From Styela clava (taxonomy: Eukaryota > Chordata > Ascidiacea > Stolidobranchia > Styelidae), in NCBI RefSeq assembly GCF_964204865.1, contig NC_135251.1:9610001-9674000 (forward strand): a stretch of 64,000 nucleotides of DNA, written 5' to 3'. The notes beneath the pieces are model-generated. The model saw nothing but the letters and a program-made list of their open reading frames with translations. It did no database searches and was not told the origin of the DNA. The first letter of the stretch is position 1. The number at the start of each line of letters is the position of its first letter. Below, one piece after another: positions 13,098 through 54,333 of this stretch. A program made the position numbers and the translations under genes.

Positions 13098-13307
13098 AAG
13101 ATCATACTTTTAGGGGTCATTTCTATAGTGTGTATCTAGGCCGTAACGTCAATAACTTGACAGTTTCCCAACGGCGATGAATCTACGAGGCCTTCGTCCC
13201 TGAGCGTGAAGTCGTCTTTGTTGTGGGTTTTGTATCCACGCAAAGGCAATGGTGAGCGTTCCGCATGTGGTCTCACTGCGGAAGGGAAGAAGGTGGTCTG
13301 AGCGGTT
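13098..13307 (+). ncRNA. U3: U3 small nucleolar RNA gene (box C/D), reference description
   Basis: U3 base-pairs with the pre-rRNA 5' ETS and 18S region in the nucleolar SSU processome and directs early 18S cleavages. The 210-nt copy starts AAGATCATACTTTTAGG, close to vertebrate U3 (AAGACTATACTTTCAGG, recalled). In typical copies box A is about nt 16-38 (ATCATTTCTATAGTGTGT), C' nt 78-86 (GCGATGATG), box B nt 103-114 (CTGAGCGTGAAG), box C nt 153-164 (TGATGAGCGTTC) and box D nt 201-204 (CTGA). TTCCGC and GCGGAA form the stem between C and D, and GTGG/CCAC forms the stem between B and C. In this copy C' is altered (GCGATGAATC), box C reads TGGTGAGCGTTC and box A has GGGGTCATTT. Whether this copy is expressed is unknown. 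Confidence 0.92.
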
Positions 13308-13361
13308 CATCAAGTATATATCTCTTCTCCATTTGGGGAAATCCTCCTTAGTTGTGAAATT

Positions 13362-13376
13362 GTAGTAAACGAGACA
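13362..13376 (+). promoter_or_regulatory. Candidate snRNA 3' box (representative)
   Basis: GTAGTAAACGAGACA resembles the Integrator-dependent 3' box (GTTTN0-3AAARNNAGA) and is conserved after nearly every U3 copy; module B has the related TTAAAAGAGATG at the homologous position. It lies about 55 bases after the expected RNA 3' end, further than the usual 9-19, so the call is tentative. Confidence 0.3.
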
Positions 13377-13856
13377 GGACGGGCAGTGTAGTCTTACCTC
13401 GTCAGAGGTAAGGGTTCGGGTTGTGCGCCATCTTGGTGCACATACTTCGGGAGCGCCGTTTCCGCTTGTTATATTATACGCGAGAACTCGGATAAAATTT
13501 AAAACACGCATGAAAATTGAAGAACTCTTCGATTCCAGTATGTATATCAATAGATAGGCAGGTATGTATCTTGGTTGTTGCTTTAGAGACTTGAACTTGC
13601 AACTGCGATAAACACTTTAGATGGTTGTGATCAGAACTGTTGCATCCGGCTTTAAAATCGACGTTTGTGAAAACAAGAAATCTAGCTCCTACCCCAGACT
13701 CAAATTCACAACGTTTCCACGCCGACTCCCGTTCTGTCTTCCGTCCCATTTATACAAATAAAATAACTTTGTCTGATGCCAAGATTGCCTATAAAAATAC
13801 CCATAAATGGTAGCACGAAAACAAAATTCACAAAGCGTGTTTTGTAGCTTCACTGC

Positions 13857-14066
13857 AAGATCATACTTTTAGGGATCATTTCTATAGTGTGTATCTAGTC
13901 CGTAACGTCAACAACTTTACAGTTTCGCAACCGCGATGATTCTGCGAGGCCTTCGTCCCTCAGCGTGAATCCGTCTTTGCTGTGGGTTTTGTATCCACGC
14001 AAAGGCAATGATGAGCGTTCCGCGTGTGGTCTCACTGCGGAAGGGAAGAAGGTGGTCTGAGCGGTT
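13857..14066 (+). ncRNA. U3: U3 snoRNA copy, box B changed
   Basis: Boxes A, C' (GCGATGATTC), C (TGATGAGCGTTCC) and D (CTGA) are present, but box B reads CTCAGCGTGAAT. Separated from the preceding copy by a short unit (759 bp). Confidence 0.88.
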
Positions 14067-14445
14067 CATCAAGTATATCTCTCTTCTCCGTTTGGGGAAA
14101 TCCTCCTTAGTTGTGAAATTGTAGTAAACGAAACAGGACGGGCAGTGTAGTCTTATCTCGTCAGAATGAACGCTGTCTATTATTGTTATGCAACTTGTAC
14201 AAAATTAAAAAAAAAAACACATAGAGTTTGTTCAATTTTGCTTTCGAGATCATACATTCAGGTATAAATTTTGAAGTTTGTACCTAAGACAGTGCTTTAA
14301 CTACTTGTGGCATTGCAACATCTTCGACTTTTGCTATGGCGCACATGCGAATATGTAAATTTAAACCTCTAGAATTTATTGCACTTATAAAGATTTACAA
14401 AATACGATTAGTATATTTTTAAATCAGGAGTTTATGTTGAAATGA

Positions 14446-14467
14446 CCATAAATACAAACATCACAAC
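14446..14467 (+). promoter_or_regulatory. PSE-like element of module B (representative)
   Basis: CCATAAATACAAACATCACA, again exactly 56 bases before the module start at 14502. A T-run followed by A-run (GGTTTTTTAAAAC) sits at about -20 to -10, too close to the start for a normal U6-type TATA box. Confidence 0.55.
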
Positions 14468-14501
14468 AACAATCACAATAGGTTTTTTAAAACACCGCCG
14501 C

Positions 14502-14576
14502 AAGATTGTACATCAAGTGATCTTGGTCGTTGAGTCAGTAACCTGACTGTTACTCAACCGCGGTCATGTCGGTGGG
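14502..14576 (+). ncRNA. Short U3-like RNA module (type B), reference description
   Basis: Homologous to U3 at both ends. It has a PSE-like motif at -56; its first 20 bases (AAGATTGTACATCAAGTGAT) align with the U3 5' end; the middle CAACCGCGATCATG aligns with the U3 hinge/C' stretch GCAACCGCGATGATG. It then jumps from C' to sequence matching the U3 3' flank, skipping boxes B and C; CATGTCGGTGGG may be a remnant around box D. Box A is not recognisable. A hairpin is possible: GTTGA..GTAAC / GTTAC TCAAC with a 4-base bulge and 6-base loop. End (about +75) is inferred from alignment to U3. Could be a deletion pseudogene or a distinct small RNA. Confidence 0.6.
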
Positions 14577-14606
14577 TTTATTCGCAGTATATTCTCAATA
14601 CAAGAG

Positions 14607-22016: not shown

Positions 22017-22147
22017 AAGATCATACATTTAGGCATCATTTCTATAGTGTGTAACTAGGCCGTAACGTCAGTACCTTGACAGTTTCGCAACCGCGATGAT
22101 GCTACGAGCCCTTCGTCCCTGAGCGTGAAGTCGTCTTTGTTGTGGTT
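22017..22147 (+). pseudogene. U3 copy lacking boxes C and D
   Basis: Box A changed (AGGCATCATTTCTATAG); the jump is from CTTTGTTGTG directly to GTTCATCAAG. Confidence 0.85.
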
Positions 22148-22580
22148 CATCAAGTATATCTCTCTTCTCCATTTGGGGAAATCCTCCTTAGTTGTGAAAT
22201 TGTAGTAAACAAGACAGGACGGGCAGTGTAGTCTTACCTCGTCAGAATAAACGCTGTCTATTATTGTTATGCAACTTGTACGAAATTGAAAAAAAAAACA
22301 CAGAGTTTGTTCAATTTTGCTTTCGAGATCATACATTCAGGTATAAATTTTGAAGTTTGTACCTTGGACAGTGCTTTAACTACTTGTGGCATTGCAACAT
22401 CTTCGACTTTTGCTATGGCGCACATGCGAATATATAAATTTAAATCTCTAGAATTTAATGCACTTATAAAGATTTTCAAAATACAATTAGGATATTTTTA
22501 AATCAAGATTTTATGTTGAAATGACCATAAATACAAACATCACAACAACAATTACAATAGGTTTTTTAAAACAACGCCGC

Positions 22581-22655
22581 AAGATTGTACTTCAAGTGAC
22601 TTTGGTCGTTGAGTCAGTAACCTGACTGTTACACAACCGCGATCATGTCGGTGGA
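22581..22655 (+). ncRNA. Short U3-like module (type B2)
   Basis: Same as the module at 17708, 4873 bases earlier. Confidence 0.57.
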
Positions 22656-23274
22656 TTTATTCGCAGTATATTCTCAATACAAGAGGAAGCTTCACTTACG
22701 CGTGAAATTAAAAGAGATGCAGCCGGAGGATGTAAGCTCATTTTCTGGTAATGAACGCTGTTTCCCCGGAACTCCAGAAGTCTGTGCACTAAGATGGCGC
22801 ACAGCTTGACCATAGTAAGTGAACCAGGTAAGGGTTCGAGTTGTGCGCCATCTTGGTGCACATACTTCGGGAGCGCCGTTTCCGCTTGTTATATGATAAG
22901 CGAGACTCGGATAAAATCTGAAACACACATGAAAATTGACGAACTCTTCGATTCCAGTATGTATATCAATAGATAGGCAGGTATGTATCTTGGTTGTTGC
23001 TTTAGAGACTTGAACTTGCAACTGCGATAAACACTTTAGATGGTTGTGACCAGAGCTGTTGCATACGGCTTTAAAATCGACTTTTGTAAAAACAGGAAAT
23101 CTAGCTCCTACCCCAGACTCAAATTCACAACGTTTCCACATCGACTCCCTTTCTGTCTCCCGTCCCATTTATACAAATAAAATAACTTTGTCTGATGCCA
23201 GGATTGCCTATAAAAATACCCATAAATGGTAGCACGAAAACAAAATTCACAAACGTGTTTTGTAGCTTCACTGC

Positions 23275-26075: not shown

Positions 26076-26694
26076 TTTATTCGCAGTATATTCTCAATAC
26101 AAGAGGAAGCTTCACTTACGCGTGAAATTAAAAGAAATGCAGCCGGAGGATGTAAACTCATTTTCTGGGAATGAACGCTGTTTCCCCGGAACTCCAGAAG
26201 TCTGTGCACTAAGATGGCGCACAGCTTGACCATAGTAAGTGAACCAGGTAAGGGTTCGAGTTGTGCGCCATCTTGGTGCACATACTTCGGGAGCGCCGTT
26301 TCCGCTTGTTATATGATAAGCGAGACTCGGATAAAATCTGAAACACACATGAAAATTGACGAACTCTTCGATTCCAGTATGTATATTAATAGATAGGCAG
26401 GTATGTATCTTGGTTGTTGCTTTAGAGACTTGAACTTGCAACTGCGATAAACACTTTAGATGGTTGTGATCAGAGCTGTTGCATACGGCTTTAAAATCGA
26501 CTTTTGTAAAAACAGGAAATCTAGCTCCTACCCCAGACTCAAATTCACAACGTTTCCACACCGACTCCCGTTCTGTCTCCCGTCCCATTTATACAAATAA
26601 AATAACTTTGTCTGATGCCAGGATTGCCTAAAAAAATACCCATAAATGGTAGCACGAAAACAAAATTCACAAACGTGTTTTGTAGCTTCACTGC

Positions 26695-26904
26695 AAGATC
26701 ATACTTTTAGGGATCATTTCTATAGTGTGTATCTAAGCCGTAACGTAAATAACTTGGCAGTTTCGCAACCGCGATGATGCTACGAGGCCTTTGTCCCTGA
26801 GCGTGAAGTCGTCTTTGTTGTGGGTTTTGTATCCACGCAAAGGCAATGATGAGCGTTCCGCATGTGGTCTCACTGCGGAAGGGAAAAAGGTGGTCTGAGC
26901 GGTT
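26695..26904 (+). ncRNA. U3: U3 snoRNA copy
   Basis: Boxes intact; CTTGGCAG in the hinge and GGGAAAAAGG before box D. PSE distance is one base short. Confidence 0.9.
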
Positions 26905-28028: not shown

Positions 28029-28238
28029 AAGATCATACTTTTAGGGATCATTTCTATAGTGTGTATCTAGGCCGTAACGTAAATAACTTGACAGTTTCGC
28101 AACCGCGATGATGCTACGGGGCCTTCGTCCCTGAGCGTGAAGTCGTCTTTGTTGTAGGTTTTGTATCCACGCAAAGGCAATGATGAGCGTTCCGCATGTG
28201 GTCTCACTGCGGAAGGGAAGAAGGTGGTCTGAGCGGTT
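28029..28238 (+). ncRNA. U3: U3 snoRNA copy, PSE changed
   Basis: Boxes intact; the B-C stem reads TGTAGGTTTTGTATCCACG (weakened). PSE is CCATGAATGG and one base closer to the start. Confidence 0.88.
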
Positions 28239-28671
28239 CATCAAGTATATCTCTCTTCTTCATTTGGGGAAATCCTCCTTAGTTGTGAAATTGTAGTAAA
28301 CGAGACAGGACGGGCAGTGTAGTCTTACCTCGTCAGAATAAACGCTGTCTATTATTGTTATGCAACTTGTACGAAATTGAAAAAAAAAACACAGGGTTTG
28401 TTCAATTTTTCTTTCGAGATCATACATTCAGGTATAAATTTTGAAGTTTGTACCTGGGACAGTGCTTTAACTACTTGTGGCATTGCAACATCTTCGACTT
28501 TTGCTATGGCGCACATGCGAATATATAAACTTAAACCTCTAGAATTTAATGCACTTATAAAGATTTTCAAAATACAATTAGGATATTTTTAAATCAAGAT
28601 TTTATGTTGAAATGACCATAAATACAAACATCACAACAACAGTCACAAAAGGTTTTTTAAAACAACGCCGC

Positions 28672-28746
28672 AAGATTGTACTTCAAGTGACTTTGGTCGT
28701 TGAGTCAGTAACCTGACTGTTACACAACCGCGATCATGTCGGTGGA
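28672..28746 (+). ncRNA. Short U3-like module (type B2)
   Basis: Body as at 17708; the PSE region has ACAACAACAGTCACAAAAGG. Confidence 0.57.
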
Positions 28747-29369
28747 TTTATTCGCAGTATATTCTCAATACAAGAGGAAGCTTCACTTACGCGTGAAATT
28801 AAAAGAGATGCAGCCGAAGGATGTAAACTCATTTGCTGGGAATGAACGCTGTTTTCCCGGAACTCCAGAAGTCTGTGCACTAAGATGGCGCACAGCTTGA
28901 ACATAGTAAGTGAACCAGGTAAGGGTTCGGGTTGTGCGCCATCTTGGTGCACATACTTCGGGAGCGCCGTTTCCGCTTGTTATATGATGAGCGAGAACTC
29001 GGATTAAATCTAAAACACACATGAAAATTGACGAACCCTCGATTCCAGTATGTATATTAATAGATAGGCAGGTATGTATCTTGGTTGTTGCTTTAGAGAC
29101 TTGAACTCGCAACTGCGATAAATAAACACTTTAGATGGTTGTGATCAGAGCTGTTGCATCCGGCTTTAAAATCGACTTTTGTGAAACAGGAAATCTAGCT
29201 CCTACCCCAGACTCAAATTCACAACGTTTCCACGCCGACTCCCGTTCTGTCTCCCGTCCAATTTATACAAATAAAATAACTTTGTCTGATGCCAGGATTG
29301 CCTATAAAAATACCCATAAATGGTAGCACGAAAACGAAATTCACAAAGCGTGTTTTGTAGCGTCACTGC

Positions 29370-31352: not shown

Positions 31353-31427
31353 AAGATTGTACTTCAAGTGAATTTGGTCGTTGAGTCAGTAACCTGACTG
31401 TTACACAACCGCGATCATGTCGGTGGA
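31353..31427 (+). ncRNA. Short U3-like module (type B2)
   Basis: AGTGAATTTGG instead of AGTGACTTTGG. Confidence 0.56.
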
Positions 31428-36713: not shown

Positions 36714-36788
36714 AAGATTGTACTTCAAGTGAATTTGGTCGTTGAGTCAGTAACCTGACTGTTACACAACCGCGATCATGTCGGTGGA
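36714..36788 (+). ncRNA. Short U3-like module (type B2)
   Basis: AGTGAATTTGG variant. Confidence 0.56.
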
Positions 36789-37407: not shown

Positions 37408-37617
37408 AAGATCATACTTTTAGGGATCATTTCTATAGTGTGTATCTAGGCCGTAACGTAAATAACTTGACAGTTTCGCAACCGCGATGATGCTACGAGG
37501 CCTTCGTCCCTGAGCGTGAAGTCGTCTTCGTTGTAGGTTTTGTATCCACGCAAAGGCAATGATGAGCGTTCCGCATGTGGTCTCACTGCGGAAGGGAAGA
37601 AGGTGGTCTGAGCGGTT
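37408..37617 (+). ncRNA. U3: U3 snoRNA copy, all boxes intact
   Basis: Counterpart of 34727 with an undamaged C-D stem (GCGGAAGGGAAGAAGG). Confidence 0.9.
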
Positions 37618-38053
37618 CATCAAGTACTTCTCTCTTCTCCATTTGGGGAAATCCTCCTTTAGTTGTGAAATTGTAGTAAACGAGACAGGACGGGCAGTGT
37701 AGTCTTACCTCGTCAGAATAAACGCTGTCTATTATTGTTATGCAACTTGTACGAAATTGAAAAAAAAAACACATAGAGTTTGTTCAATTTTGCTTTCGAG
37801 ATCATACATTCAGGTATGAATTTTGAAGTTTGTACCTAGGACAGTGCTTTAACTACTTGTGGCATTGCAACATCTTTGACTTTTGCTATGGCGCACATGC
37901 GAATATATAAATTTAAACCTCTAGAATTTAATGCACTTATAAAGATTTTCAAAATACAATTAGGATATTTTTAAATCAAGATTTTATGTTGAAATGACCT
38001 TAAATACAAACATCACAACAACAATCACAATAGGTTTTTTAAAACAACGCCGC

Positions 38054-38128
38054 AAGATTGTACTTCAAGTGAATTTGGTCGTTGAGTCAGTAACCTGACT
38101 GTTACACAACCGCGATCATGTCGGTGGA
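38054..38128 (+). ncRNA. Short U3-like module (type B2)
   Basis: AGTGAATTTGG variant; PSE CCTTAAATAC. Confidence 0.55.
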
Positions 38129-38749
38129 TTTATTCGCAGTATATTCTCAATACAAGAGGAAGCTTCACTTACGCGTGAAATTAAAAGAGATGCAGCCGGA
38201 GGATGTAAACTCATTTGCTGGGAATGAACGCTGTATTCCCGGAACTCCAGAAGTCTTTGCACTAAGATGGCGCACAGCTTGAACATAGTAAGTGAACCAG
38301 GTAAGGGTTCGGGTTGTGCGCCATCTTGGTGCACATACTTCGGGAGCGCCGTTTCCGCTTGTTATATGATAAGCAAGAACTCGGATGAAATCTAAAACAC
38401 ACATGAAAATTGACGAACCCTTCGATTCCAGTATGTATATTAATAGATAGGCAGGTATGTATCTTGGTTGTTGCTTTAGACACTTGAACTCGCTACTGCG
38501 ATAAACACTTTAGATGGTTGTGATCAGAGCTGTTGCATCCGGCTTTAAAATCGACTTTTGTGAAAACAGGATATCTAGCTCCTAACCCAGACTCAAATTC
38601 ACAACTTTTCCACGCCGACTCCCGTTCAGTCTCCCGTCCCATTTATACAAATAAAATAACTTTGTCTGATGCCAGGATTGCCTATAAAAATACCCATAAA
38701 TGGTAGCACGAAAACAAAATTCACAAAGCGTGTTTTGTAGCTTCACTGC

Positions 38750-40766: not shown

Positions 40767-40976
40767 AAGATCATACTTTTAGGTGTCATTTCTATAGTGT
40801 GTATCTAGGCCGTAACGTAAATAACTTGACAGTTTCGCAACCGCGATGATGCTACGAGGCCTTCGTCCCTGAGCGTGAAGTCGTCTTCGTTGTGGGTTTT
40901 GTATCCACGCAAAGGCAATGACGAGTGTTCCGCATGTGGTCTCACTGCGGAAGGGAAGAAGGTGGTCTGAGCGGTT
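40767..40976 (+). ncRNA. U3: U3 snoRNA copy, boxes A and C changed
   Basis: Box A AGGTGTCATTTC; box C TGACGAGTGTTCC (two changes from TGATGAGCGTTCC). Box D intact. Possibly weakened. Confidence 0.85.
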
Positions 40977-41524
40977 CATCAAGTATATCTCTCTTCTCCA
41001 TTTGGGGAAATCCTCCTTAGTTGTGAAATTGTAGTGAATGAGACAGGACCGTCAGTGTAGTCTTACCTCGTCAGAGATAAGGGTTCGGGTTGTGCGCCAT
41101 CTTGGTGCACATACTTCGGGAGCGCCGTTTCGGCTCGTTATATGATAAGCGAGAACTCGGATAAAATCTAAAACACACATGAAAATTGACGAACCCTTCG
41201 ATTCCAGTATGTATATTAATAGATAGGCAGGTATGTATCTTGGTTGTTGCTTTATAGACTTGAACTCGCAACTGCGATAAACACTTCAGATGGTTGTGAT
41301 CAGAGCTGTTGCATCCGGCTTTAAAATCGACTTTTGTGAAAACAGGAAATCTAGCTCCAACCCCAGACTCAAATTCACAACTTTTCCACGCCGACTTCTG
41401 TTCTGTCTCCCGTCCCATTTATACAAATAAAATACCTTTGTCTGATGCCAGGATTGCCTATAAAAATACCCATAAATGGTAGCACGAAAGCAAAATTCAC
41501 AAAGCGTGTTTTGTAGCTTCACTG

Positions 41525-41734
41525 CAAGATCATACTTTTAGGGATCATTTCTATAGTGTGTATCTAGGCCGTAACGTAAACAACTTGACAGTTTCGCAAC
41601 CGCGATGATGCTACGAGGCCTTCGTCCCTGAGCGTGAAGTCGTCTTCGTTGTGGGTTTTGTATCCACGCAAAGGCAATGACGAGCGTTCCGCATGTGGTC
41701 TCACTGCGGAAGGGAAGAAGGTGGTCTGAGCGGT
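41525..41734 (+). ncRNA. U3: U3 snoRNA copy, box C TGACGA
   Basis: One change in box C (TGACGAGCGTTCC); all other boxes intact. Confidence 0.87.
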
Positions 41735-42284
41735 TCATCAAGTATATCTCTCTTCTCCATTTGGGGAAATCCTCCTTAGTTGTGAAATTGTAGTAAACGA
41801 GACAGGACCGTCAGTGTAGTCTTACCTCGTCAGAGATAAGGGTTCGGGTTGTGCGCCATCTTGGTGCACATACTTCGGGAGCGCCGTTTCGGCTCGTTAT
41901 ATGATAAGCGAGAACTCGGATAAAATCTAAAACACACATGAAAATTGACGAACCCTTCGATTCCAGTATGTATATTAATAGATAGGCAGGTATGTATCTT
42001 GGTTGTTGCTTTATAGACTTGAACTCGCAACTGCGATAAACACTTCAGATGGTTGTGATCAGAGCTGTTGCATCCGGCTTTAAAATCGACTTTTGGGAAA
42101 ACAGGAAATCTAGCTCCTACCCCAGACTCTAATTCACAACGTTCCCACACCGACTCCCGTTCTGTCTCCTGTCCCATTTATACAAATAAAATAACTTTGT
42201 CTGATACCAGAATTGCCTATAAAAATACCCATAAATGGTAGCACGAAAACAAAATTCACAAAGCGTGTTTTGCAGCTTCACTGC

Positions 42285-42494
42285 AAGATCATACTTTTAG
42301 GGATCATTTCTATAGTGTGTATCTAGGCCGTAACGTAAATAACTTGACAGTTTCGCAACCGCGATGATGCTACGAGGCCTTCGTCCCTGAGCGTGAAGTC
42401 GTCTTCGTTGTGGGTTTTGTATCCACGCAAAGGCAATGATGAGCGTTCCGCATGTGGTCTCACTGCGGAAGGGAAGAAGGTGGTCTGAGCGGTT
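42285..42494 (+). ncRNA. U3: U3 snoRNA copy, all boxes intact
   Basis: No damaged box seen; promoter has TTTTGCAGC for TTTTGTAGC. Confidence 0.91.
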
Positions 42495-43043
42495 CATGAA
42501 GTATATCTCTCTTCTCCATTTGGGGAAATCCTCCTTAGTTGTGAAATTGTAGTAAACGAGACAGGACGGGCAGTGTAGTCTTACCTCGTCAGAGATAAGG
42601 GTTCGGGTTGTGCGCCATCTTGGTGCACATACGTCGGAAGCGCCGTTTCCGGTCGTTATATGATAAGCGAGAACTCGGATAAAATCTAAAACACACATGA
42701 AAATTCACGAACCCTTCGATTCTAGTATGTATATTAATAGATAGGCAGGTATGTATCTTGGTTGTTGCTTTATAGACTTGAACTCGCAACTGCGATAAAC
42801 ACTTTAAATGGTTGTGATCAGAGCTGTTGCATCCGGCTTTAGAATCGACTTTTGTGAAAACAGGAAATCTAGCTCCTACCCCAGACTCAAATTCACAACG
42901 TTTCCACACCGACTCCCGTTCCGTCTCCCGTCCCATTTATACAAATAAAATAACTTTGTCTGATGCCAGGATTGCCTATAAAAATACCCATAAATGGTAG
43001 CACAAAAACAAAATTCACAAAGCGTGTTTTGTAGCTTCACTGC

Positions 43044-43176
43044 AAGATCATACTTTTAGGCATCTTTTATATAGTGTGTATCTAGCTCGTAACGTCAATA
43101 ACTTGACAGTTTCGCAACCGCGATGATGCTACGAGCCCCTTCGTCCCTGAGCGTGAAGTCGTCTTTGTTATGGTTC
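43044..43176 (+). pseudogene. U3 copy lacking boxes C and D
   Basis: Box A AGGCATCTTTTATATAG (further damaged); jump from TTTGTTATG to GTTCATCAAG. Confidence 0.85.
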
Positions 43177-43614
43177 ATCAAGTAAATCTCTCTTCTCCAT
43201 TTGGGGAAATCCTTCTCAGTTATGAAGTTGTAGGAAACGAGACAGAACGGGCAGTGTAGTCTTACCTCGTCAGAATAAACGCTGTCTATTATTGTTATGC
43301 AACTTGTACGAAATTGAAAAAAAAAATACATAGAGTTTGTTCAATTTTGCTTACGAGATCATACATTCAGGTATAAATTTTGAAGTTTGTACCTAGAACA
43401 GTGCTTTAACTACTTGTGGCATTGCAACATCTTTGACTTTTGCTATGGCGCACATGCGAATATATAAATTTAAACCTCTAGAATTTAATGCACTTATAAA
43501 TAAAGATTTTCAAAATACAATTAGGATATTTTTAAATCAAGATTTTATGTTGAAATGACCATAAATACAAACATCACAACAACAATCACATTAGGTTTTT
43601 TAAAACAACGCCGC

Positions 43615-43689
43615 AAGATTGTACTTCAAGTGAATTTGGTCGTTGAGTCAGTAACCTGACTGTTACACAACCGCGATCATGTCGGTGGA
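43615..43689 (+). ncRNA. Short U3-like module (type B2)
   Basis: AGTGAATTTGG variant. Confidence 0.56.
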
Positions 43690-44310
43690 TTTATTCGCAG
43701 TATATTCTCAAAACAAGAGGAAGCTTCACTTACGCGTGAAATTAAAAGAGATGCAGCCGGAGGATGTAAACTCATTTGCTGGGAATGAACGATGTATTCC
43801 CGGAACTCCAGAAGTCTTTGCACTAAGATGGCGCACAGCTTGAACATAGTAAGTGAACCAGGTAAGGGTTCGGGTTGTGCGCCATCTTGGTGCACATACT
43901 TCGGGAGCGCCGTTTCCGCTTGTTATATGATAAGCAAGAACTCGGATAAAATCTAAAACACACATGAAAATTGACGAACCCTTCGATTCCAGTATGTATA
44001 TTAATAGATAGGCAGGTATGTATCTTGGTTGTTGCTTTAGACACTTGAACTCGCTACTGCGATAAACACTTTAGATGGTTGTGATCAGAGCTGTTGCATC
44101 CGGCTTTAAAATCTACTTTTGTGAAAACATGAAATCTAGCTCCTAACCCAGACTCAAATTCACAACTTTTCCACGCCGACTCCCGTTCTGTCTCCCGTCC
44201 CATTTATACAAATAAAATAACTTTGTCTGATGCCAGGATTGCCTATAAAAATACCCATAAATGGTAGCACGAAAACAAAATTCACAAAGCGTGTTTTGTA
44301 GCTTCGCTGC

Positions 44311-44520
44311 AAGATCATACTTTTAAGGATCATTTCTATAGTGTGTTTCTAGGCCGTAACGTAAATGACTTGACAGTTTCGCAACCGCGATGATGCTACG
44401 AGGCCTTCGTCCCTGAGCGTGAAGTCGTCTTCGTTGTGGGTTTTGTATCCACGCAAAGGCAATGATGAGCGTTCCGCATGTGGTCTCACTGCGGAAGGGA
44501 AGAAGGTGGTCTGAGCGGTT
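44311..44520 (+). ncRNA. U3: U3 snoRNA copy
   Basis: Box A TTAAGGATCATTTCTATAG and GTGTTTCTAGG; boxes B, C and D intact. Confidence 0.88.
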
Positions 44521-45069
44521 CATGAAGTATATCTCTCTTCTCCGTTTGGGGAAATCCTCCTTAGTTGTGAAATTGTAGTAAACGAGACAGGACGGGCAGT
44601 GTAGTCTTACCTCGTCAGAGATAAGGGTTCGGGTTGTGCGCCATCTTGGTGCACATACGTCGGGAGCGCCGTTTCCGGTCGTTATATGATAAGCGAGAAC
44701 TCGGATAAAATCTAAAACACACATGAAAATTGACGAACCCTTCGATTCTAGTATGTATATTAATAGATAGGCAGGTATGTATCTTAGTTGTTGCTTTATA
44801 GACTTGAACTCGCAACTGCGATAAACACTTTAAATGGTTGTGATCAGAGCTGTTGCATCCGGCTTTAAAATCGACTTTTGGGAAAACAGGAAATCTAGCT
44901 CCTACCCCAGACTCAAATTCACAACGTTTCCACACCGACTCCCGTTCCGTCTCCCGTCCCATTTATACAAATAAAATAACTTTGTCTGATGCCAGGATTG
45001 CCTATAAAAATACCCATAAATGGTAGCACAAAAACAAAATTCACAAAGCGTGTTTTGTAGCTTCACTGC

Positions 45070-45201
45070 AAGATCATACTTTTAGGCATCTTTTATATAG
45101 TGTGTATCTAGCTCGTAACGTCAATAACTTGACAGTTTCGCAACCGCGTTGATGCTACGAGCCCCTTCGTCCCTGAGCGTGAAGTCGTCTTTGTTATGGT
45201 T
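45070..45201 (+). pseudogene. U3 copy lacking boxes C and D
   Basis: C' changed (GCGTTGATGC); jump from TTTGTTATG to GTTCATCAAG. Confidence 0.85.
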
Positions 45202-45636
45202 CATCAAGTAAATCTCTCTTCTCCATTTGGGGAAATCCTTCTCAGTTGTGAAGTTGTAGGAAACGAGACAGGACGGGCAGTGTAGTCTTATCTCGTCAGA
45301 ATGAACGCTGTCTATTATTGTTATGCAACTTGTAAAAAATTGAAAAAAAAACACATAGAGTTTGTTCAATTTTACTTTCGAGATCATACATTCAGGTATA
45401 AATTTTGAAGTTTGTACCTAAGACAGTGCTTTAACTACTTGTGGCATTGCAACATCTTCGACTTTTGCTATGGCGCACATGTGAATATATACATTTAAAC
45501 CTCTAGAATTTATTGCACTTATAAAGATTTCCAAAATAAGATTAGGATATTTTAAAATCAAGAGTTTATGTTGAAATGACCATAAATATAAACATCACAA
45601 CAACAATCACAATAGGTTTTTTAAAAACACCGCCGC

Positions 45637-45711
45637 AAGATTGTACATCAAGTGATCTTGGTCGTTGAGTCAGTAACCTGACTGTTACTCAACCGCGATC
45701 AGGTCGGTGGG
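45637..45711 (+). ncRNA. Short U3-like module (type B1)
   Basis: Stem intact; end reads GATCAGGTCGGTGGG. One extra A in the promoter (TTTTTTAAAAAC). Confidence 0.58.
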
Positions 45712-46332
45712 TTTATTCGCAGTATATTCTCAATACAAGAGGAAGCTATACTTACGCGTGAAATTAAAAGAGATGAAGCCGGAGGATGTAAACTCATTTG
45801 CTGGATATGAACGCTGTTTCCCCGGAACTCCAGTAGTCTGTGCACTAAGATGGCGCACAGCTTGAACATAATAAGTGAACTAGGTAAGGGTTCGGGTTGT
45901 GCGCCATCTTGGTGCACATACGTCGGGAGCGCCGTTTCCGCTTGTTATATGATAAGCGAGAACTCGGATAAAATCTAAAACACACATGAAAATTGACGAA
46001 CTCTTCGATTCCAGTATGTATATTAATAGATAGGCAGGTATGTATGTTGGTTGTTGCTTTAGAGACTTGAACTTGCAACTGCGATAAACACTTTAGATGG
46101 TTGAGATCAGAGCTGTTGCATCCGGCTTTAAAATCGACTTTTGTGAAAACAGGAAATCTAGCTCCTACCCCAGACTCAAATTCACAACTTTTCCACGCCG
46201 ACTTCTGTTCTGTCTCCCGTCCCATTTATACAAATAAAATAACTTTGTCTGATGCCAGGATTGCCTATAAAAATACCCATAAATGGTAGCACGAAAGCAA
46301 AATTCACAAAGCGTGTTTTGTAGCTTCACTGC

Positions 46333-46542
46333 AAGATCATACTTTTAGGTGTCATTTCTATAGTGTGTATCTAGGCCGTAACGTAAATAACTTGACAGTT
46401 TCGCAACCGCGATGATGCTACGAGGCCTTCGTCCCTGAGCGTGAAGTCGTCTTCGTTGTGGGTTTTGTATCCACGCAAAGGCAATGACGAGTGTTCCGCA
46501 TGTGGTCTCACTGCGGAAGGGAAGAAGGTGGTCTGAGCGGTT
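46333..46542 (+). ncRNA. U3: U3 snoRNA copy, boxes A and C changed
   Basis: Duplicate of the copy at 40767 with the same TGACGAGTGTTCC. Confidence 0.85.
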
Positions 46543-47091
46543 CATCAAGTATATCTCTCTTCTCCATTTGGGGAAATCCTCCTTAGTTGTGAAATTGTAG
46601 TGAATGAGACAGGACCGTCAGTGTAGTCTTACCTCGTCAGAGATAAGGGTTCGGGTTGTGCGCCATCTTGGTGCACATACTTCGGGAGCGCCGTTTCGGC
46701 TCGTTATATGATAAGCGAGAACTCGGATAAAATCTAAAACACACATGAAAATTGACGAACCCTTCGATTCCAGTATGTATATTAATAGATAGGCAGGTAT
46801 GTATCTTGGTTGTTGCTTTATAGACTTGAACTCGCAACTGCGATAAACACTTCAGATGGTTGTGATCAGAGCTGTTGCATCCGGCTTTAAAATCGACTTT
46901 TGTGAAAACAGGAAATCTAGCTCCAACCCCAGACTCAAATTCACAACTTTTCCACGCCGACTTCTGTTCTGTCTCCCGTCCCATTTATACAAATAAAATA
47001 CCTTTGTCTGATGCCAGGATTGCCTATAAAAATACCCATAAATGGTAGCACGAAAGCAAAATTCACAAAGCGTGTTTTGTAGCTTCACTGC

Positions 47092-47301
47092 AAGATCATA
47101 CTTTTAGGGATCATTTCTATAGTGTGTATCTAGGCCGTAACGTAAACAACTTGACAGTTTCGCAACCGCGATGATGCTACGAGGCCTTCGTCCCTGAGCG
47201 TGAAGTCGTCTTCGTTGTGGGTTTTGTATCCACGCAAAGGCAATGACGAGCGTTCCGCATGTGGTCTCACTGCGGAAGGGAAGAAGGTGGTCTGAGCGGT
47301 T
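47092..47301 (+). ncRNA. U3: U3 snoRNA copy, box C TGACGA
   Basis: Duplicate of the copy at 41525. Confidence 0.87.
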
Positions 47302-47850
47302 CATCAAGTATATCTCTCTTCTCCATTTGGGGAAATCCTCCTTAGTTGTGAAATTGTAGTAAACGAGACAGGACCGTCAGTGTAGTCTTACCTCGTCAGA
47401 GATAAGGGTTCGGGTTGTGCGCCATCTTGGTGCACATACTTCGGGAGCGCCGTTTCGGCTCGTTATATGATAAGCGAGAACTCGGATAAAATCTAAAACA
47501 CACATGAAAATTGACGAACCCTTCGATTCCAGTATGTATATTAATAGATAGGCAGGTATGTATCTTGGTTGTTGCTTTATAGACTTGAACTCGCAACTGC
47601 GATAAACACTTCAGATGGTTGTGATCAGAGCTGTTGCATCCGGCTTTAAAATCGACTTTTGGGAAAACAGGAAATCTAGCTCCTACCCCAGACTCTAATT
47701 CACAACGTTCCCACACCGACTCCCGTTCTGTCTCCCGTCCCATTTATACAAATAAAATAACTTTGTCTGATACCAGAATTGCCTATAAAAATACCCATAA
47801 ATGGTAGCACGAAAACAAAATTCACAAAGCGTGTTTTGCAGCTTCACTGC

Positions 47851-48060
47851 AAGATCATACTTTTAGGGATCATTTCTATAGTGTGTATCTAGGCCGTAAC
47901 GTAAATAACTTGACAGTTTCGCAACCGCGATGATGCTACGAGGCCTTCGTCCCTGAGCGTGAAGTCGTCTTCGTTGTGGGTTTTGTATCCACGCAAAGGC
48001 AATGATGAGCGTTCCGCATGTGGTCTCACTGCGGAAGGGAAGAAGGTGGTCTGAGCGGTT
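47851..48060 (+). ncRNA. U3: U3 snoRNA copy, all boxes intact
   Basis: Duplicate of the copy at 42285. Confidence 0.91.
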
Positions 48061-48609
48061 CATGAAGTATATCTCTCTTCTCCATTTGGGGAAATCCTCC
48101 TTAGTTGTGAAATTGTAGTAAACGAGACAGGACGGGCAGTGTAGTCTTACCTCGTCAGAGATAAGGGTTCGGGTTGTGCGCCATCTTGGTGCACATACGT
48201 CGGAAGCGCCGTTTCCGGTCGTTATATGATAAGCGAGAACTCGGATAAAATCTAAAACACACATGAAAATTCACGAACCCTTCGATTCTAGTATGTATAT
48301 TAATAGATAGGCAGGTATGTATCTTGGTTGTTGCTTTATAGACTTGAACTCGCAACTGCGATAAACACTTTAAATGGTTGTGATCAGAGCTGTTGCATCC
48401 GGCTTTAGAATCGACTTTTGTGAAAACAGGAAATCTAGCTCCTACCCCAGACTCAAATTCACAACGTTTCCACACCGACTCCCGTTCCGTCTCCCGTCCC
48501 ATTTATACAAATAAAATAACTTTGTCTGATGCCAGGATTGCCTATAAAAATACCCATAAATGGTAGCACAAAAACAAAATTCACAAAGCGTGTTTTGTAG
48601 CTCCACTGC

Positions 48610-48741
48610 AAGATCATACTTTTAGGCATCTTTTATATAGTGTGTATCTAGCTCGTAACGTCAATAACTTGACAGTTTCGCAACCGCGATGATGCTACGA
48701 GCCCCTTCGTCCCTGAGCGTGAAGTCGTCTTTGTTATGGTT
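48610..48741 (+). pseudogene. U3 copy lacking boxes C and D
   Basis: Duplicate of the copy at 43044; promoter has CTCCACTGC. Confidence 0.85.
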
Positions 48742-49176
48742 CATCAAGTAAATCTCTCTTCTCCATTTGGGGAAATCCTTCTCAGTTATGAAGTTGTAGG
48801 AAACGAGACAGAACGGGCAGTGTAGTCTTACCTCGTCAGAATAAACGCTGTCTATTATTGTTATGCAACTTGTACGAAATTGAAAAAAAAAATACATAGA
48901 GTTTGTTCAATTTTGCTTACGAGATCATACATTCAGGTATAAATTTTGAAGTTTGTACCTAGAACAGTGCTTTAACTACTTGTGGCATTGCAACATCTTT
49001 GACTTTTGCTATGGCGCACATGCGAATATATAAATTTAAACCTCTAGAATTTAATGCACTTATAAAGATTTTCAAAATACAATTAGGATATTTTTAAATC
49101 AAGATTTTATGTTGAAATGACCATAAATACAAACATCACAACAACAATCACATTAGGTTTTTTAAAACAACGCCGC

Positions 49177-49251
49177 AAGATTGTACTTCAAGTGAATTTG
49201 GTCGTTGAGTCAGTAACCTGACTGTTACACAACCGCGATCATGTCGGTGGA
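49177..49251 (+). ncRNA. Short U3-like module (type B2)
   Basis: Duplicate of the module at 43615. Confidence 0.56.
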
Positions 49252-49872
49252 TTTATTCGCAGTATATTCTCAAAACAAGAGGAAGCTTCACTTACGCGTG
49301 AAATTAAAAGAGATGCAGCCGGAGGATGTAAACTCATTTGCTGGGAATGAACGCTGTATTCCCGGAACTCCAGAAGTCTTTGCACTAAGATGGCGCACAG
49401 CTTGAACATAGTAAGTGAACCAGGTAAGGGTTCGGGTTGTGCGCCATCTTGGTGCACATACTTCGGGAGCGCCGTTTCCGCTTGTTATATGATAAGCAAG
49501 AACTCGGATAAAATCTAAAACACACATGAAAATTGACGAACCCTTCGATTCCAGTATGTATATTAATAGATAGGCAGGTATGTATCTTGGTTGTTGCTTT
49601 AGACACTTGAACTCGCTACTGCGATAAACACTTTAGATGGTTGTGATCAGAGCTGTTGCATCCGGCTTTAAAATCGACTTTTGTGAAAACATGAAATCTA
49701 GCTCCTAACCCAGACTCAAATTCACAACTTTTCCACGCCGACTCCCGTTCTGTCTCCCGTCCCATTTATACAAATAAAATAACTTTGTCTGATGCCAGGA
49801 TTGCCTATAAAAATACCCATAAATGGTAGCACGAAAACAAAATTCACAAAGCGTGTTTTGTAGCTTCGCTGC

Positions 49873-50082
49873 AAGATCATACTTTTAAGGATCATTTCTA
49901 TAGTGTGTTTCTAGGCCGTAACGTAAATGACTTGACAGTTTCGCAACCGCGATGATGCTACGAGGCCTTCGTCCCTGAGCGTGAAGTCGTCTTCGTTGTG
50001 GGTTTTGTATCCACGCAAAGGCAATGATGAGCGTTCCGCATGTGGTCTCACTGCGGAAGGGAAGAAGGTGGTCTGAGCGGTT
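49873..50082 (+). ncRNA. U3: U3 snoRNA copy
   Basis: Duplicate of the copy at 44311. Confidence 0.88.
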
Positions 50083-50631
50083 CATGAAGTATATCTCTCT
50101 TCTCCGTTTGGGGAAATCCTCCTTAGTTGTGAAATTGTAGTAAACGAGACAGGACGGGCAGTGTAGTCTTACCTCGTCAGAGATAAGGGTTCGGGTTGTG
50201 CGCCATCTTGGTGCACATACGTCGGGAGCGCCGTTTCCGGTCGTTATATGATAAGCGAGAACTCGGATAAAATCTAAAACACACATGAAAATTGACGAAC
50301 CCTTCGATTCTAGTATGTATATTAATAGATAGGCAGGTATGTATCTTAGTTGTTGCTTTATAGACTTGAACTCGCAACTGCGATAAACACTTTAAATGGT
50401 TGTGATCAGAGCTGTTGCATCCGGCTTTAAAATCGACTTTTGGGAAAACAGGAAATCTAGCTCCTACCCCAGACTCAAATTCACAACGTTTCCACACCGA
50501 CTCCCGTTCCGTCTCCCGTCCCATTTATACAAATAAAATAACTTTGTCTGATGCCAGGATTGCCTATAAAAATACCCATAAATGGTAGCACAAAAACAAA
50601 ATTCACAAAGCGTGTTTTGTAGCTTCACTGC

Positions 50632-50763
50632 AAGATCATACTTTTAGGCATCTTTTATATAGTGTGTATCTAGCTCGTAACGTCAATAACTTGACAGTTT
50701 CGCAGCCGCGTTGGTGCTACGAGCCCCTTCGTCCCTGAGCGTGAAGTCGTCTTTGTTATGGTT
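50632..50763 (+). pseudogene. U3 copy lacking boxes C and D
   Basis: C' further damaged (GCGTTGGTGC) compared with the copy at 45070. Confidence 0.85.
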
Positions 50764-51199
50764 CATCAAGTAAATCTCTCTTCTCCATTTGGGGAAATCC
50801 TTCTCAGTTGTGAAGTTGTAGGAAACGAGACAGGACGGGCAGTGTAGTCTTATCTCGTCAGAATGAACGCTGTCTATTATTGTTATGCAACTTGTAAAAA
50901 ATTGAAAAAAAAAACACATAGAGTTTGTTCAATTTTACTTTCGAGATCATACATTCAGGTATAAATTTTGAAGTTTGTACCTAAGACAGTGCTTTAACTA
51001 CTTGTGGCATTGCAACATCTTCGACTTTTGCTATGGCGCACATGTGAATATATACATTTAAACCTCTAGAATTTATTGCACTTATAAAGATTTCCAAAAT
51101 AAGATTAGGATATTTTAAAATCAAGAGTTTATGTTGAAATGACCATAAATATAAACATCACAACAACAATCACAATAGGTTTTTTAAAAACACCGCCGC

Positions 51200-51274
51200 A
51201 AGATTGTACATCAAGTGATCTTGGTCGTTGAGTCAGTAACCTGACTGTTACTCAACCGCGATCAGGTCGGTGGG
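51200..51274 (+). ncRNA. Short U3-like module (type B1)
   Basis: Duplicate of the module at 45637, including GATCAGGTCGG. Confidence 0.58.
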
Positions 51275-51894
51275 TTTATTCGCAGTATATTCTCAATACA
51301 AGAGGAAGCTATACTTACGCGTGAAATTAAAAGAGATGAAGCCGGAGGATGTAAACTCATTTGCTGGATATGAACGCTGTTTCCCCGGAACTCCAGTAGT
51401 CTGTGCACTAAGATGGCGCACAGCTTGAACATAGTAAGTGAACTAGGTAAGGGTTCGGGTTGTGCGCCATCTTGGTGCACATACTTCGGGAGCGCCGTTT
51501 CCGCTTGTTATATGATAAGCGAGAACTCGGATAAAATCTAAAACACACATGAAAATTGACGAACTATTCGATTCCAGTATGTATATTAATAGATAGGCAG
51601 GTATGTATGTTGGTTGTTGCTTTAGAGACTTGAACTTGCAACTGCGATAAACACTTTAGATGGTTGAGATCAGAGCTGTTGCATCCGGCTTTAAAATCGA
51701 CTTTTGTGAAAACAGGAAATCTAGCTCCTACCCCAGACTCAAATTCACAACTTTTCCACGCCGACTCCCGTTCTGTCTCCCGTCCAATTTATACAAATAA
51801 AATAACTTTGTCTGATGCCAGGATTGCCTATAAAAATACCCATAAATGGTAGCACGAAAACAAAATTCACAAAGCGTGTTTTGTAGCTTCACTG

Positions 51895-52104
51895 CAAGAT
51901 CATACTTTTAGGGATCATTTCTATAGTGTGTATCTAGGCCGTAACGTAAATAACTTGACAGTTTCGCAACCGCGATGATGCTACGAGGCCTTCGTCCCTG
52001 AGCGTGAAGTCGACTTCGTTGTGGGTTTTGTATCCACGCAAAGGCAATGATGAGCGTTCCGCATGTGGTCTCACTGCGGAAGGGAAGAAGGTGGTCTGAG
52101 CGGT
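51895..52104 (+). ncRNA. U3: U3 snoRNA copy, all boxes intact
   Basis: Boxes intact; GTGAAGTCGACTTCG after box B creates a short palindrome. Confidence 0.9.
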
Positions 52105-52654
52105 TCATCAAGTATATCTCTCTTCTCCATTTGGGGAAATCCTCCTTAGTTGTGAAATTGTAGTAAACGAGACAGGACGGGCAGTGTAGTCTCACCTCGT
52201 CAGAGATAAGGGTTCGGGTTGTGCGCCATCTTGGTGCACATACTTCGGGAGCGCCGTTTCCGCTCGTTATATGATAAGCGAGAACTCGGATAAAATCTAA
52301 AACACACATGAAAATTGACGAACCCTTCGATTCCAGTATGTATATTAATAGATAGGCAGGTATGTATCTTAGTTGTTGCTTTATAGACATGAACTCGCAA
52401 CTGCGATAAACACTTCAGATGGTTGTGATCAGAGCTGTTGCATCCGGCTTTAAAATCGACTTTTGGGAAAACAGGAAATCTAGCTCCTACCCCAGACTCT
52501 AATTCACAACGTTCCCACACCGACTCCCGTTCTGTCTCCCGTCCCATTTATACGAATAAAATAACTTTGTCTGATACCAGGATTGCCTATAAAAATACCC
52601 ATAAATGGTAGCACGAAAACAAAATTCACAAAGCGTGTTTTGTAGCTTCACTGC

Positions 52655-52864
52655 AAGATCATACTTATAGGGATCATTTCTATAGTGTGTATCTAGGCCG
52701 TAACGTAAATTACTTGACAGTTTCGCAACCGCGATGATGCTACGAGGCCTTCGTCCCTGAGCGTGAAGTCGTCTTCGTTGTGGGTTTTGTATCCACGCAA
52801 AGCCAATGATGAGCGTTCCGCATGTGGTCTCACTGCGGAAGGGAAGAAGGTGGTCTGAGCGGTT
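52655..52864 (+). ncRNA. U3: U3 snoRNA copy
   Basis: ACTTATAGGGATC near the 5' end; boxes B, C and D intact. Confidence 0.9.
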
Positions 52865-53299
52865 CATCAAGTATATCTCTCTTCTCCATTTGGGGAAATC
52901 CTCCTTAGTTGTGAAATTGTAGTAAACGAGACAGGACGGGCAGTGTAATCTTATCTCGTCAGAATAAACGCTGTCTATTATTGTTATGCAACTTGTACGA
53001 AATTGAAAAAAAAACAACATAGAGTTTGTTCAATTTTGCTTTCGAGATCATACATTCAGGTATAAATTTTGAAGTTTGTACCTAGGACAGTGCTTTAACT
53101 ACTTGTGGCATTGCAACATCTTTGACTTTTGCTATGGCGCACATGCGAATATATAAATTTAAACCTCTAGAATTTAATGCACTTATAAAGATTTTCAAAA
53201 TACAATTAGGATATTTTTAAATCAAGATTTTATGTTGAAATGACCATAAATACAAACATCACAACAACAATCACAATAGGTTTTTTAAAACAACGCCGC

Positions 53300-53374
53300 A
53301 AGATTGTACTTCAAGTGACTTTGGTCGTTGAGTCAGTAACCTGACTGTTACACAATTGCGATCATGTCGGTGGA
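53300..53374 (+). ncRNA. Short U3-like module (type B2)
   Basis: ACAATTGCGATC for ACAACCGCGATC. Confidence 0.55.
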
Positions 53375-53996
53375 TTTATTCGCAGTATATTCTCTATACA
53401 AGAGGAAGTTTCACTTACGCGTGAAATTAAAAGAGATGCAGCCGGAGGATGTAAACTCATTTGCTGGGAATGAACGCTGTTTTCCCGGAACTCCAGAAGT
53501 CTGTGCACTAAGATGGCGCACAGCTTGAACATAGTAAGTGAACCAGGTAAGGGTTCGGGTTGTGCGCCATCTTGGTGCACATACTTCGGGAGCGCCTTTT
53601 CCGCTTGTTATATGATAAGCGAGAACTCGGATAAAATCTAAAACACACATGAAAATTGACGAACCCTTCGATTCCAGTATGTATATTAATATATAGGCAG
53701 GTATGTATCTTGGTTGTTGCTTTATAGACTTGAACTCGCAACTGCAATAAACACTTAAAGATGGTTGTGATCAGAGCTGTTGCATCCGGCTTTAAAATCG
53801 ACTTTTGGGAAAACAGCAAATCTAGCTCCTACCCCAAACTCTAATTCACAACGTTCCCACACCGACTCCCGTTCTGTCTCCCGTCCCATTTATATAAATA
53901 AAATAACTTTGTCTGATGCCAGGATTGCCTATAAAAATACCCATAAATGGTAGCACGAAAACAAAATTCACAAAGCGTGTTTTGTAGCTTCACTTC

Positions 53997-54098
53997 AAGA
54001 TCATACTTTTAGGGATCATTTCTATAGTGTGTATCTAGTCCGTAACGTCAACAACTTTACAGTTTCGCAACCGCGATCATGTCGGTGGATTTATTCGC
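53997..54098 (+). pseudogene. Chimera of U3 5' half and module B
   Basis: A U3 promoter and 5' domain (AAGATCATACTTTTAGGG to TTTCGCAACCGCGAT) continue directly into the B sequence CATGTCGGTGGATTTATTCG. The switch lies in the about 10 bases, CAACCGCGAT, that U3 and B share, as expected for recombination or slippage between them. Boxes B, C and D of U3 are lost. Confidence 0.85.
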
Positions 54099-54333
54099 AG
54101 TATATTCTCAATACAAGAGGAAGCTTCACTTACGCGTGAAATTAAAAGAGATGAAGCCAGAGGATGTGAACTCACGACCTCTATGGGTGGTAAACTTCAT
54201 TTCAAGCATCGTGTCACATATTTAAATACCCACTTAAAATTGCTTCCCAATTTGCTGGAAAGCCAAGAAACTGTATGTCCGTATGTTTGTATCCCATTGT
54301 AATTACAAATTCTGCAAATTGATTTATTGTTTT

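What the first reader, a model, noticed from the sequence alone, without database searches (positions are those of the whole stretch)
13098..54173. A U3 snoRNA gene array organised as satellite-like higher-order repeats
The sequence shows 39 U3 loci in one orientation within 41 kb, built from two unit lengths (about 1338 and 759 bp) that are themselves amplified with longer periods. Tandem U1, U2 and 5S arrays are well known, and human U3 occurs as a few dispersed or inverted-repeat copies, but I know of no U3 array with alpha-satellite-like multi-level periodicity. About 26 copies keep boxes C and D, so the array may be the main U3 source in this animal.
Basis: partly seen in the sequence, partly recalled or inferred. 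Interest (0 to 1): 0.92.

Follow-up and report, generated by a model that had tools for sequence, protein, structure and literature searches.

The report
Tandem U3 gene array, satellite-like structure
Nearly all recognisable copies of the gene for U3, a small RNA needed to make ribosomes, sit in one stretch of this animal's genome, mostly in a 41-kilobase tandem array amplified in nested blocks the way satellite DNA is, with about half of the full-length copies looking fully intact and the rest damaged.

Summary
Units are L (~1338 bp) and S (759 bp). Monomers average 95.9% identity; higher-order copies reach 99.3-100% (~5,566 bp x2) and 97.9-99.9% (~2,680 bp x3). Genome-wide, 42 of 45 U3 5'-domain matches lie in this window.

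New here: L is a dimer, a U3 gene plus a dead U3 relic, and predates S, which arose by one deletion ending at a hairpin's centre. Old decayed U3 units flank the array. All 39 copies have a PSE-like element at -56/-57, shared with dispersed U3 genes and resembling that of U1. The same genome holds tandem U2 and HOR-like U1 clusters.

"Main U3 source" is plausible, unproven: 20 of 31 full-length copies keep exact boxes C and D, 14 all five boxes; within the array the U3 body is no more conserved than spacer. No paper on a U3 higher-order array turned up in narrow searches. New variant of a known kind.

The parts
13098..54174 (+). core U3 array: 38 units (15 L, 6 tL, 16 S, 1 tS) plus a terminal hybrid U3 stub at 53997
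   Evidence: cmscan; unit blastn; unit lengths and alignment
28029..29369 (+). representative L unit (1341 bp): U3 gene (1-209), spacer, degenerate PSE (~586), dead U3 relic (alignable to ~710), hairpin (~835-936), PSE of the next gene (~1285-1301)
41526..42284 (+). representative S unit (759 bp): L unit minus ~579 bp; junction in the same place in all 17 S-type units, with a one-base G/A difference between two groups
22017..23274 (+). representative tL unit: U3 with a 79-bp internal deletion (about nt 128-206) removing boxes C and D; 7 such units (6 tL, 1 tS)
   Evidence: boundaries read in three units
40767..51895 (+). higher-order repeat, ~5,566 bp x2 (S S S tL S tL); corresponding monomers 99.29-100% identical
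30709..38749 (+). higher-order repeat, ~2,680 bp dimer of L units x3; corresponding monomers 97.9-99.85% identical
26695..26903 (+). best-scoring array U3 gene (130.7 bits), boxes A, C', B, C, D exact
26639..26655 (+). PSE-like promoter element of that gene, CCCATAAATGGTAGCAC at -56; exact in 38 of 39 array copies and in both left-edge copies
53997..54174 (+). terminal hybrid: U3 nt 1-85 continuing into the relic half of an L unit; marks the 3' end of the array
1418..5928 (+). old left-flank units: decayed U3 copies at 2434 and 4769, and relics following PSE-like elements at 1476, 1881, 3928, 4205 (relics not seen by Rfam)
60533..63238 (+). old right-flank units: U3 copies 60971, 62123 and sub-threshold 61542, 63026, each with a PSE-like element 51-56 bp upstream
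54334..59541 (-). non-LTR retrotransposon ORF pieces (RT and endonuclease by Pfam; a CCHC-like piece by eye) between the array end and the right-flank U3 units

Best explanation
This is the animal's principal cluster of U3 snoRNA genes, a tandem array in which each unit carries its own RNA polymerase II snRNA-type promoter element (PSE, at about -57) and one U3 gene. It evolves like a satellite, by birth and death through repeated unequal exchange. Steps: (1) an old PSE-U3 unit was duplicated locally, leaving decayed units on both flanks; (2) one half of a pair died, and the dimer (live U3 + dead U3) became the L unit; (3) a ~579-bp deletion ending at the centre of a hairpin made the S unit, once; (4) a 79-bp deletion inside one U3 made a defective gene, which was then copied along with its neighbours; (5) multi-unit blocks were duplicated recently, giving the 2.7- and 5.6-kb higher-order repeats. 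About 14-20 copies should still be able to make normal U3; the others are tolerated passengers. The anatomy behind steps 2-5 is shown by the sequence; unequal exchange as the process, transcription, and the array being the main U3 supply are inferred.
For: 42 Rfam U3 hits on one strand. 42 of 45 genome-wide U3 5'-domain matches lie in the window, reversed-pattern control 0. All 83 reported spacer matches are at this locus (40 of 1581 candidates scored). PSE-like 17-mer exact in 38 of 39 array copies and both left-edge copies. A matching element is the one upstream block conserved across the nine U3 genes compared, dispersed ones included; a similar element stands at about -56 in 4 of 4 U1 genes looked at by eye. 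Edge copies 2434 and 4769 keep 23/23 and 22/23 PSE-block bases where upstream sequence is 81-82% identical. 14 of 31 full-length copies keep all five boxes. The box B-box C hairpin folds better than at least 98% of 200 shuffles in 7 of 7 sequences tried (array, edge and dispersed; z -2.3 to -5.5), and 20 of 64 consensus pairs show a two-sided change (no shuffled control run). L predates S: left-flank units contain the L-only segment at 86-88%. All 17 S-type junctions coincide. L relic against the array U3 gene scores 80, shuffle maximum 37 of 1000. Corresponding higher-order monomers 99.29-100% and 97.9-99.85%. The longest near-invariant run of columns (42) lies in the 3' part of U3, just above the permutation 95th percentile of 40, though those columns hold only the 31 full-length copies.
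Against: No transcription data. Inside the array, U3 diversity (3.90%) is not below spacer diversity (2.68-4.11%) over 31 full-length copies. Of 56 distinct substitutions, 26 hit 106 paired sites and 30 hit 103 unpaired sites; 17 of the 26 break pairs. The 33-column near-invariant run holding the PSE is within the permutation range. The U3 PSE pattern, at up to 6 mismatches, was found before 1 of 4 dispersed U2 genes; the others resemble it only by eye. 11 of 31 full-length copies have a changed box C or D. Three dispersed U3 genes could suffice.
Confidence: 0.68

Rival explanations
1. Mostly silent U3-derived satellite: the array is a pseudogene satellite seeded by a U3 gene, and U3 RNA comes mainly from the three dispersed genes.
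For: U3 no more conserved than spacer within the array; 17 of 26 distinct changes at paired sites break the pair; a copy lacking boxes C and D amplified to 7; the relic-bearing segment is present in all 21 L-type units (the relic itself tested in one); dispersed copies score as high on Rfam (126.4-130.6 bits).
Against: 14 of 31 copies keep all five boxes. The PSE-like element is exact in 38 of 39 array copies, and edge copies keep 23/23 and 22/23 bases beside 81-82% identical sequence. The array lineage kept its hairpin through sequence turnover. Two of the three dispersed genes have a changed box C (TGAAGA, TGAGGA; read by eye), so they are not plainly better genes.
Confidence: 0.24
2. Assembly artefact: the copy number or the higher-order order is created by mis-assembly of a smaller cluster.
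For: No reads available; two near-identical ~5.57-kb blocks lie side by side.
Against: Longest exact repeat is 2,033 bp, shorter than typical long reads (the read type is not known here); 24 distinct U3 sequences among 31 full-length copies; no N in the window.
Confidence: 0.05
3. The repeats are copies of a mobile element that captured a U3 gene.
For: A LINE abuts the array; an inverted self-match (hairpin) was reported in 19 of 21 L-type units.
Against: All 83 spacer matches reported genome-wide lie in this one locus; units are head-to-tail in one orientation; deletion junctions are shared by descent.
Confidence: 0.03

Closest known systems
Tandem snRNA gene arrays, e.g. human RNU2 (recalled), and the U2 array of this same genome (C6)
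   Same: Short RNA gene plus spacer, one orientation in the listed part, amplified in tandem at one locus.
   Different: In the listed part the U2 array is very regular (mostly 1,169 bp; units not aligned here); the U3 array has ~4% divergence between units, two unit lengths, nested higher-order repeats, embedded dead copies and many defective genes. The three U2 array copies viewed show no clear PSE by eye.
U1 clusters of this same genome (C5)
   Same: Recurring offsets of 6,653, 12,012 and 4,365 bp between gene places, so possibly HOR too.
   Different: Spread over several sub-clusters and both strands across ~2.2 Mb; not aligned here.
Alpha-satellite higher-order repeats (recalled)
   Same: Diverged monomers, near-identical multi-monomer blocks, old decayed monomers at the edges.
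   Different: A gene-bearing array, only 41 kb; centromere position not known here.
Multi-copy U3 genes: Euglena gracilis (at least 14, PMC2784804), Entamoeba histolytica (5, PMC3542256), king crabs ('massively proliferated', PMC8086120), human U3 copies (recalled)
   Same: U3 present in many copies.
   Different: Euglena copies are stand-alone or linked to tRNA or U5 genes; Entamoeba copies are intergenic; the crab passage gives no arrangement. No tandem or higher-order U3 array appeared in the passages read.

Membership tests
U3 snoRNA (RF00012) | Covariance-model score above gathering (34 bits) | tested here: met
   38 of 39 array copies; 31 at 109.9-130.7 bits; 50632 is below threshold
U3 snoRNA (RF00012) | Boxes A, C', B, C, D intact | tested here: inconclusive
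   met in 14 of 31 full-length copies (all five exact); C and D exact in 20 of 31; the 7 deletion copies lack C and D
U3 snoRNA (RF00012) | Own Pol II snRNA-type promoter (PSE) | tested here: met
   element at -56/-57 in all 39 copies, one with a single change; same core in dispersed U3, similar in U1 (by eye); weaker for U2 (pattern in 1 of 4). Named PSE from recall and position; function not tested
U3 snoRNA (RF00012) | Transcribed, capped, bound by U3-55K and 15.5K proteins, needed for 18S processing | not testable with these tools
   no RNA or protein data
Higher-order-repeat satellite | Multi-monomer blocks much more alike than neighbouring monomers | tested here: met
   99.29-100% and 97.9-99.85% against 95.9% for all pairs
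Higher-order-repeat satellite | Edges older and more decayed than the core | tested here: met
   against one core unit, left-flank pieces match at 68-88% (plus one 40-bp piece at 97.5%) and right-flank pieces at 74-81%
Higher-order-repeat satellite | Non-genic, long (100 kb to Mb), heterochromatic or centromeric | tested here: not met
   41 kb and gene-bearing; chromatin state and centromere position not testable. Hence 'satellite-like', not filed as a satellite
Homogeneous tandem gene array (concerted evolution) | Units nearly identical throughout | tested here: not met
   minimum pair identity 93.8%, mean 95.9%

The most novel reading that the evidence does not exclude
A gene array caught turning into a satellite while still in use, in which the promoter element is the part kept across all copies: PSE elements stay intact in front of truncated and decayed U3 bodies because an array of PSEs itself has a job, such as gathering SNAPc and snRNA-locus bodies, with the U3 RNA needed from only some copies.
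Probability: 0.08. Interest if true: 0.75.

Novelty: new variant of a known kind. Interest (0 to 1): 0.5.

Why it matters
If transcribed, an essential ribosome-assembly RNA would come mainly from a locus that behaves like a satellite, with live, damaged and dead copies interleaved. That gives an ordered series (flank relics, L dimer, S deletion, 79-bp deletion, higher-order blocks) for asking how gene arrays keep enough good copies while unequal exchange spreads bad ones. The U2 and U1 clusters of the same genome provide built-in comparisons.

Tried and rejected
Mobile-element origin: rejected, all 83 reported spacer matches are at this locus. Protein-coding spacer: two of the antisense spacer ORFs listed were scanned and had no Pfam match. 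The Rfam MIR844 and MIR6457 matches are far below their gathering scores and are taken as plain hairpins. PSE selection inside the array alone: not supported by the column-permutation test, so the PSE argument rests on the edge copies and the dispersed paralogs. Naming the organism: not achieved. COX1 found nothing in the held assembly, the 18S search failed, let-7 is present (so a bilaterian by recalled distribution), and bantam is uninformative (nothing rang anywhere). One search aligned two minus-strand genes without reversing them and is superseded. The box slices were off by one and are superseded; its edge identities and its count of distinct U3 sequences do not depend on those slices.

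Literature: the searches were narrow. ('U3 snoRNA' with 'higher-order repeat') 0 papers; ('U3 snoRNA genes' with 'tandem') 5; ('SNORD3', 'tandem repeats', 'satellite') 1; ('copies of U3', 'snoRNA', 'genome') 4; broader. Read: passages and section 15 of PMC2784804; passages of PMC8086120, PMC3542256 and PMC5006418. Everything else was seen only as search listings. Most papers of subscription journals, where older U3 gene work would be, are not in the library.
Full report
Observation. Rfam's U3 model (RF00012) gives 42 hits above gathering in the 64-kb window, all on the + strand. Thirty-eight lie in 13098-54173, 31 of them full length at 109.9-130.7 bits. The 39 are 31 full-length copies, 7 copies with a 79-bp internal deletion, and one hybrid stub at 53997. 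The window is C2:9610001-9674000 of a 376.6-Mb assembly in 379 contigs.

Units. The array has 15 L units (1325-1343 bp; one of 1769 bp carries an insertion), 6 tL (1258-1267 bp), 16 S (759 bp) and 1 tS (680 bp). S equals L without about 579 bp; the junction is in the same place in all 17 S-type units, with a one-base G/A difference between two groups, so it most likely arose once. The breakpoint lies at the centre of a hairpin (predicted -71.5 kcal/mol for 131 nt in the unit at 28029); an inverted self-match there was reported in 19 of 21 L-type units. The 't' deletion removes about nt 128-206 of U3, with boxes C and D; blastn shows the gap in all seven copies, and the three copies whose boundaries were read agree.

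L is a dimer. The segment present in L but absent from S holds a decayed PSE and a dead U3: in the unit at 28029 its alignment to the array gene plus upstream region scores 80, against a maximum of 37 in 1000 dinucleotide shuffles. Against the C2:9598416 gene it scores 74 (maximum 39). Against the C2:13993224 gene the score is only 40, which 2 of 1000 shuffles reach, and Rfam reports no U3 there at E up to 1. The segment is present in all 21 L-type units. Relics in the left flank after PSE-like elements at 1881, 3928 and 4205 share the loss of the box A region with the L relic and score 61-78 against shuffle maxima of 35-37, though Rfam sees none of them. The left-flank copies 2434 and 4769 carry the L-only segment at 86-88%, so L is older than S. 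The stub at 53997 runs from U3 nt 1-85 into the relic half of an L unit, with overlap, which is what exchange between a live gene and a relic would leave.

Higher-order structure. Over 38 units the mean pairwise identity is 95.9% (minimum 93.8%) and between neighbours 96.2%. The six monomers of 40767-46332 match those of 46333-51895 at 100, 99.87, 99.87, 99.84, 100 and 99.29%. The L dimers at 30709, 33388 and 36070 match at 99.4-99.85% for the first monomer and 97.9-99.4% for the second. Exact-repeat offsets peak at about 5,566 and 2,680 bp; the longest exact repeat is 2,033 bp. Between 17065 and 28028 the near-identical pairs are at mixed offsets (4,872, 8,292, 8,305, 4,112 bp), a scrambled pattern and not a clean repeat.

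Flanks. Old U3 units lie on both sides. Left: 2434 and 4769 plus relics. Right: 60971 and 62123 plus sub-threshold copies at 61542 and 63026, where PSE-like elements had pointed to a start; the same kind of pointer at four left-flank places gave no Rfam hit. An inverted U3 gene at C2:9598416-9598624, 11.4 kb before the window start, is homologous to the right-flank unit around 60971 over ~690 bp at 73%. A LINE (RT and endonuclease pieces) lies between the array end and the right-flank units.

Rest of the genome. A 40-nt U3 5'-domain pattern with up to 3 mismatches finds 45 places, 42 of them in the window (39 in the array), with 0 in the reversed-pattern control. The other three are C2:9598416, C2:13993224 and C9:8770689, at 64-75% identity to the three array copies compared. 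By eye in the alignment, box D is GTCTGA in all three and box C is TGATGA in the first, TGAGGA in the second and TGAAGA in the third. The Rfam search scored only 61 of 3729 candidates, so more divergent copies could exist. The spacer matches only at this locus, 83 of 83 reported, 40 of 1581 candidates scored.

Function, for. A 17-base element, CCCATAAATGGTAGCAC, lies at -56/-57 of all 39 array copies, with one change in one copy. A matching element is the one upstream block conserved across the nine array, edge and dispersed U3 genes compared. A similar element stands at about -56 before 4 of 4 U1 genes, by eye. For U2 the case is weaker: the U3 element, with up to 6 mismatches, is found before 1 of 4 dispersed genes, and the rest share only a CACCATAA-like start by eye. 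I call it the PSE from general knowledge. Edge copies keep 23/23 and 22/23 of its bases beside 81-82% identical upstream sequence. The hairpin between boxes B and C folds better than at least 98% of 200 shuffles in 7 of 7 sequences tried, with intervals chosen by me, and 20 of 64 consensus pairs show at least one two-sided change (no shuffled control).

Function, against. Within the array the U3 body (3.90% diversity) is not more conserved than the spacer (2.68-4.11%). Of 56 distinct substitutions, 26 fall on 106 paired sites and 30 on 103 unpaired sites, and 17 of the 26 break the pair. PSE windows are among the most uniform 17-mers (8 of the top 13 of 737 windows, which overlap one another), but the 33-column run containing the PSE is within the permutation range; the longest run, 42 columns in the 3' part of U3, just passes the 95th percentile of 40, on columns that hold only 31 copies. 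Boxes C and D are both exact in 20 of 31, and all five boxes in 14 of 31 (11 distinct sequences). So selection on single copies looks weak, as expected for an array, and activity is not proven.

Comparison. The same genome has a U2 array (238 pattern matches genome-wide; the listed places are on C6, mostly 1,169 bp apart) and U1 clusters on C5 whose places repeat at 6,653, 12,012 and 4,365 bp (42 of 5897 candidates scored). Tandem snRNA-type clusters are thus a habit of this genome, and U1 may share the higher-order habit. In print, multi-copy U3 is described in Euglena (PMC2784804, passages and one section read), Entamoeba (PMC3542256, passages) and king crabs (PMC8086120, passages). No U3 higher-order array was found (and the others listed), within a library that lacks most subscription journals.

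Verdict. Real, correctly described in its main lines, and richer than described: a dimer-based, satellite-like U3 gene array with live, damaged and dead copies. It is a new variant of a known kind (tandem snRNA-type gene array). Whether it supplies most U3 needs RNA data.

Noticed in passing
G000 C6:17529495 onward (outside window; L018-L021): Tandem U2 snRNA array, listed places mostly 1,169 bp apart, 238 genome-wide pattern matches. The C6 places listed score 140.8-153.6 bits against 171-178.7 for the four best U2 genes elsewhere (three further ones elsewhere score 133.9-135.8); three array copies viewed differ in several positions and in the 3' part, without a clear PSE by eye.
   Followed up: partly
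G000 C5:2.50-4.66 Mb (outside window): U1 snRNA clusters with repeated offsets (6,653, 12,012, 4,365 bp), suggesting higher-order repeats there too.
   Followed up: no
L010:7444-9012 (C2:9607444-9609012): A 522-aa uninterrupted ORF that resembles arginyl-tRNA-protein transferase ATE1 by eye (no search run), possibly a retrocopy, about 1 kb before the window.
   Followed up: no
54334-59541 (-): Non-LTR retrotransposon ORF pieces abutting the 3' end of the array.
   Followed up: partly
14606-15028: Insertion of ~420 bp, with a short AAGAAC repeat, inside the L unit at 13857; origin not searched.
   Followed up: no
L unit ~835-936, e.g. 28861-28966: Strong hairpin, reported as an inverted self-match in 19 of 21 L-type units, with AAGATGGCGC-like motifs on both arms (YY1-like, recalled); the S-unit deletion ends at its centre.
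   Followed up: partly
7134-7297: 46-bp tandem repeat, 3.6 copies.
   Followed up: no
11426-12085 (+): 219-aa ORF that looks like a hAT/ZBED-type transposase piece by eye; no Pfam match.
   Followed up: partly
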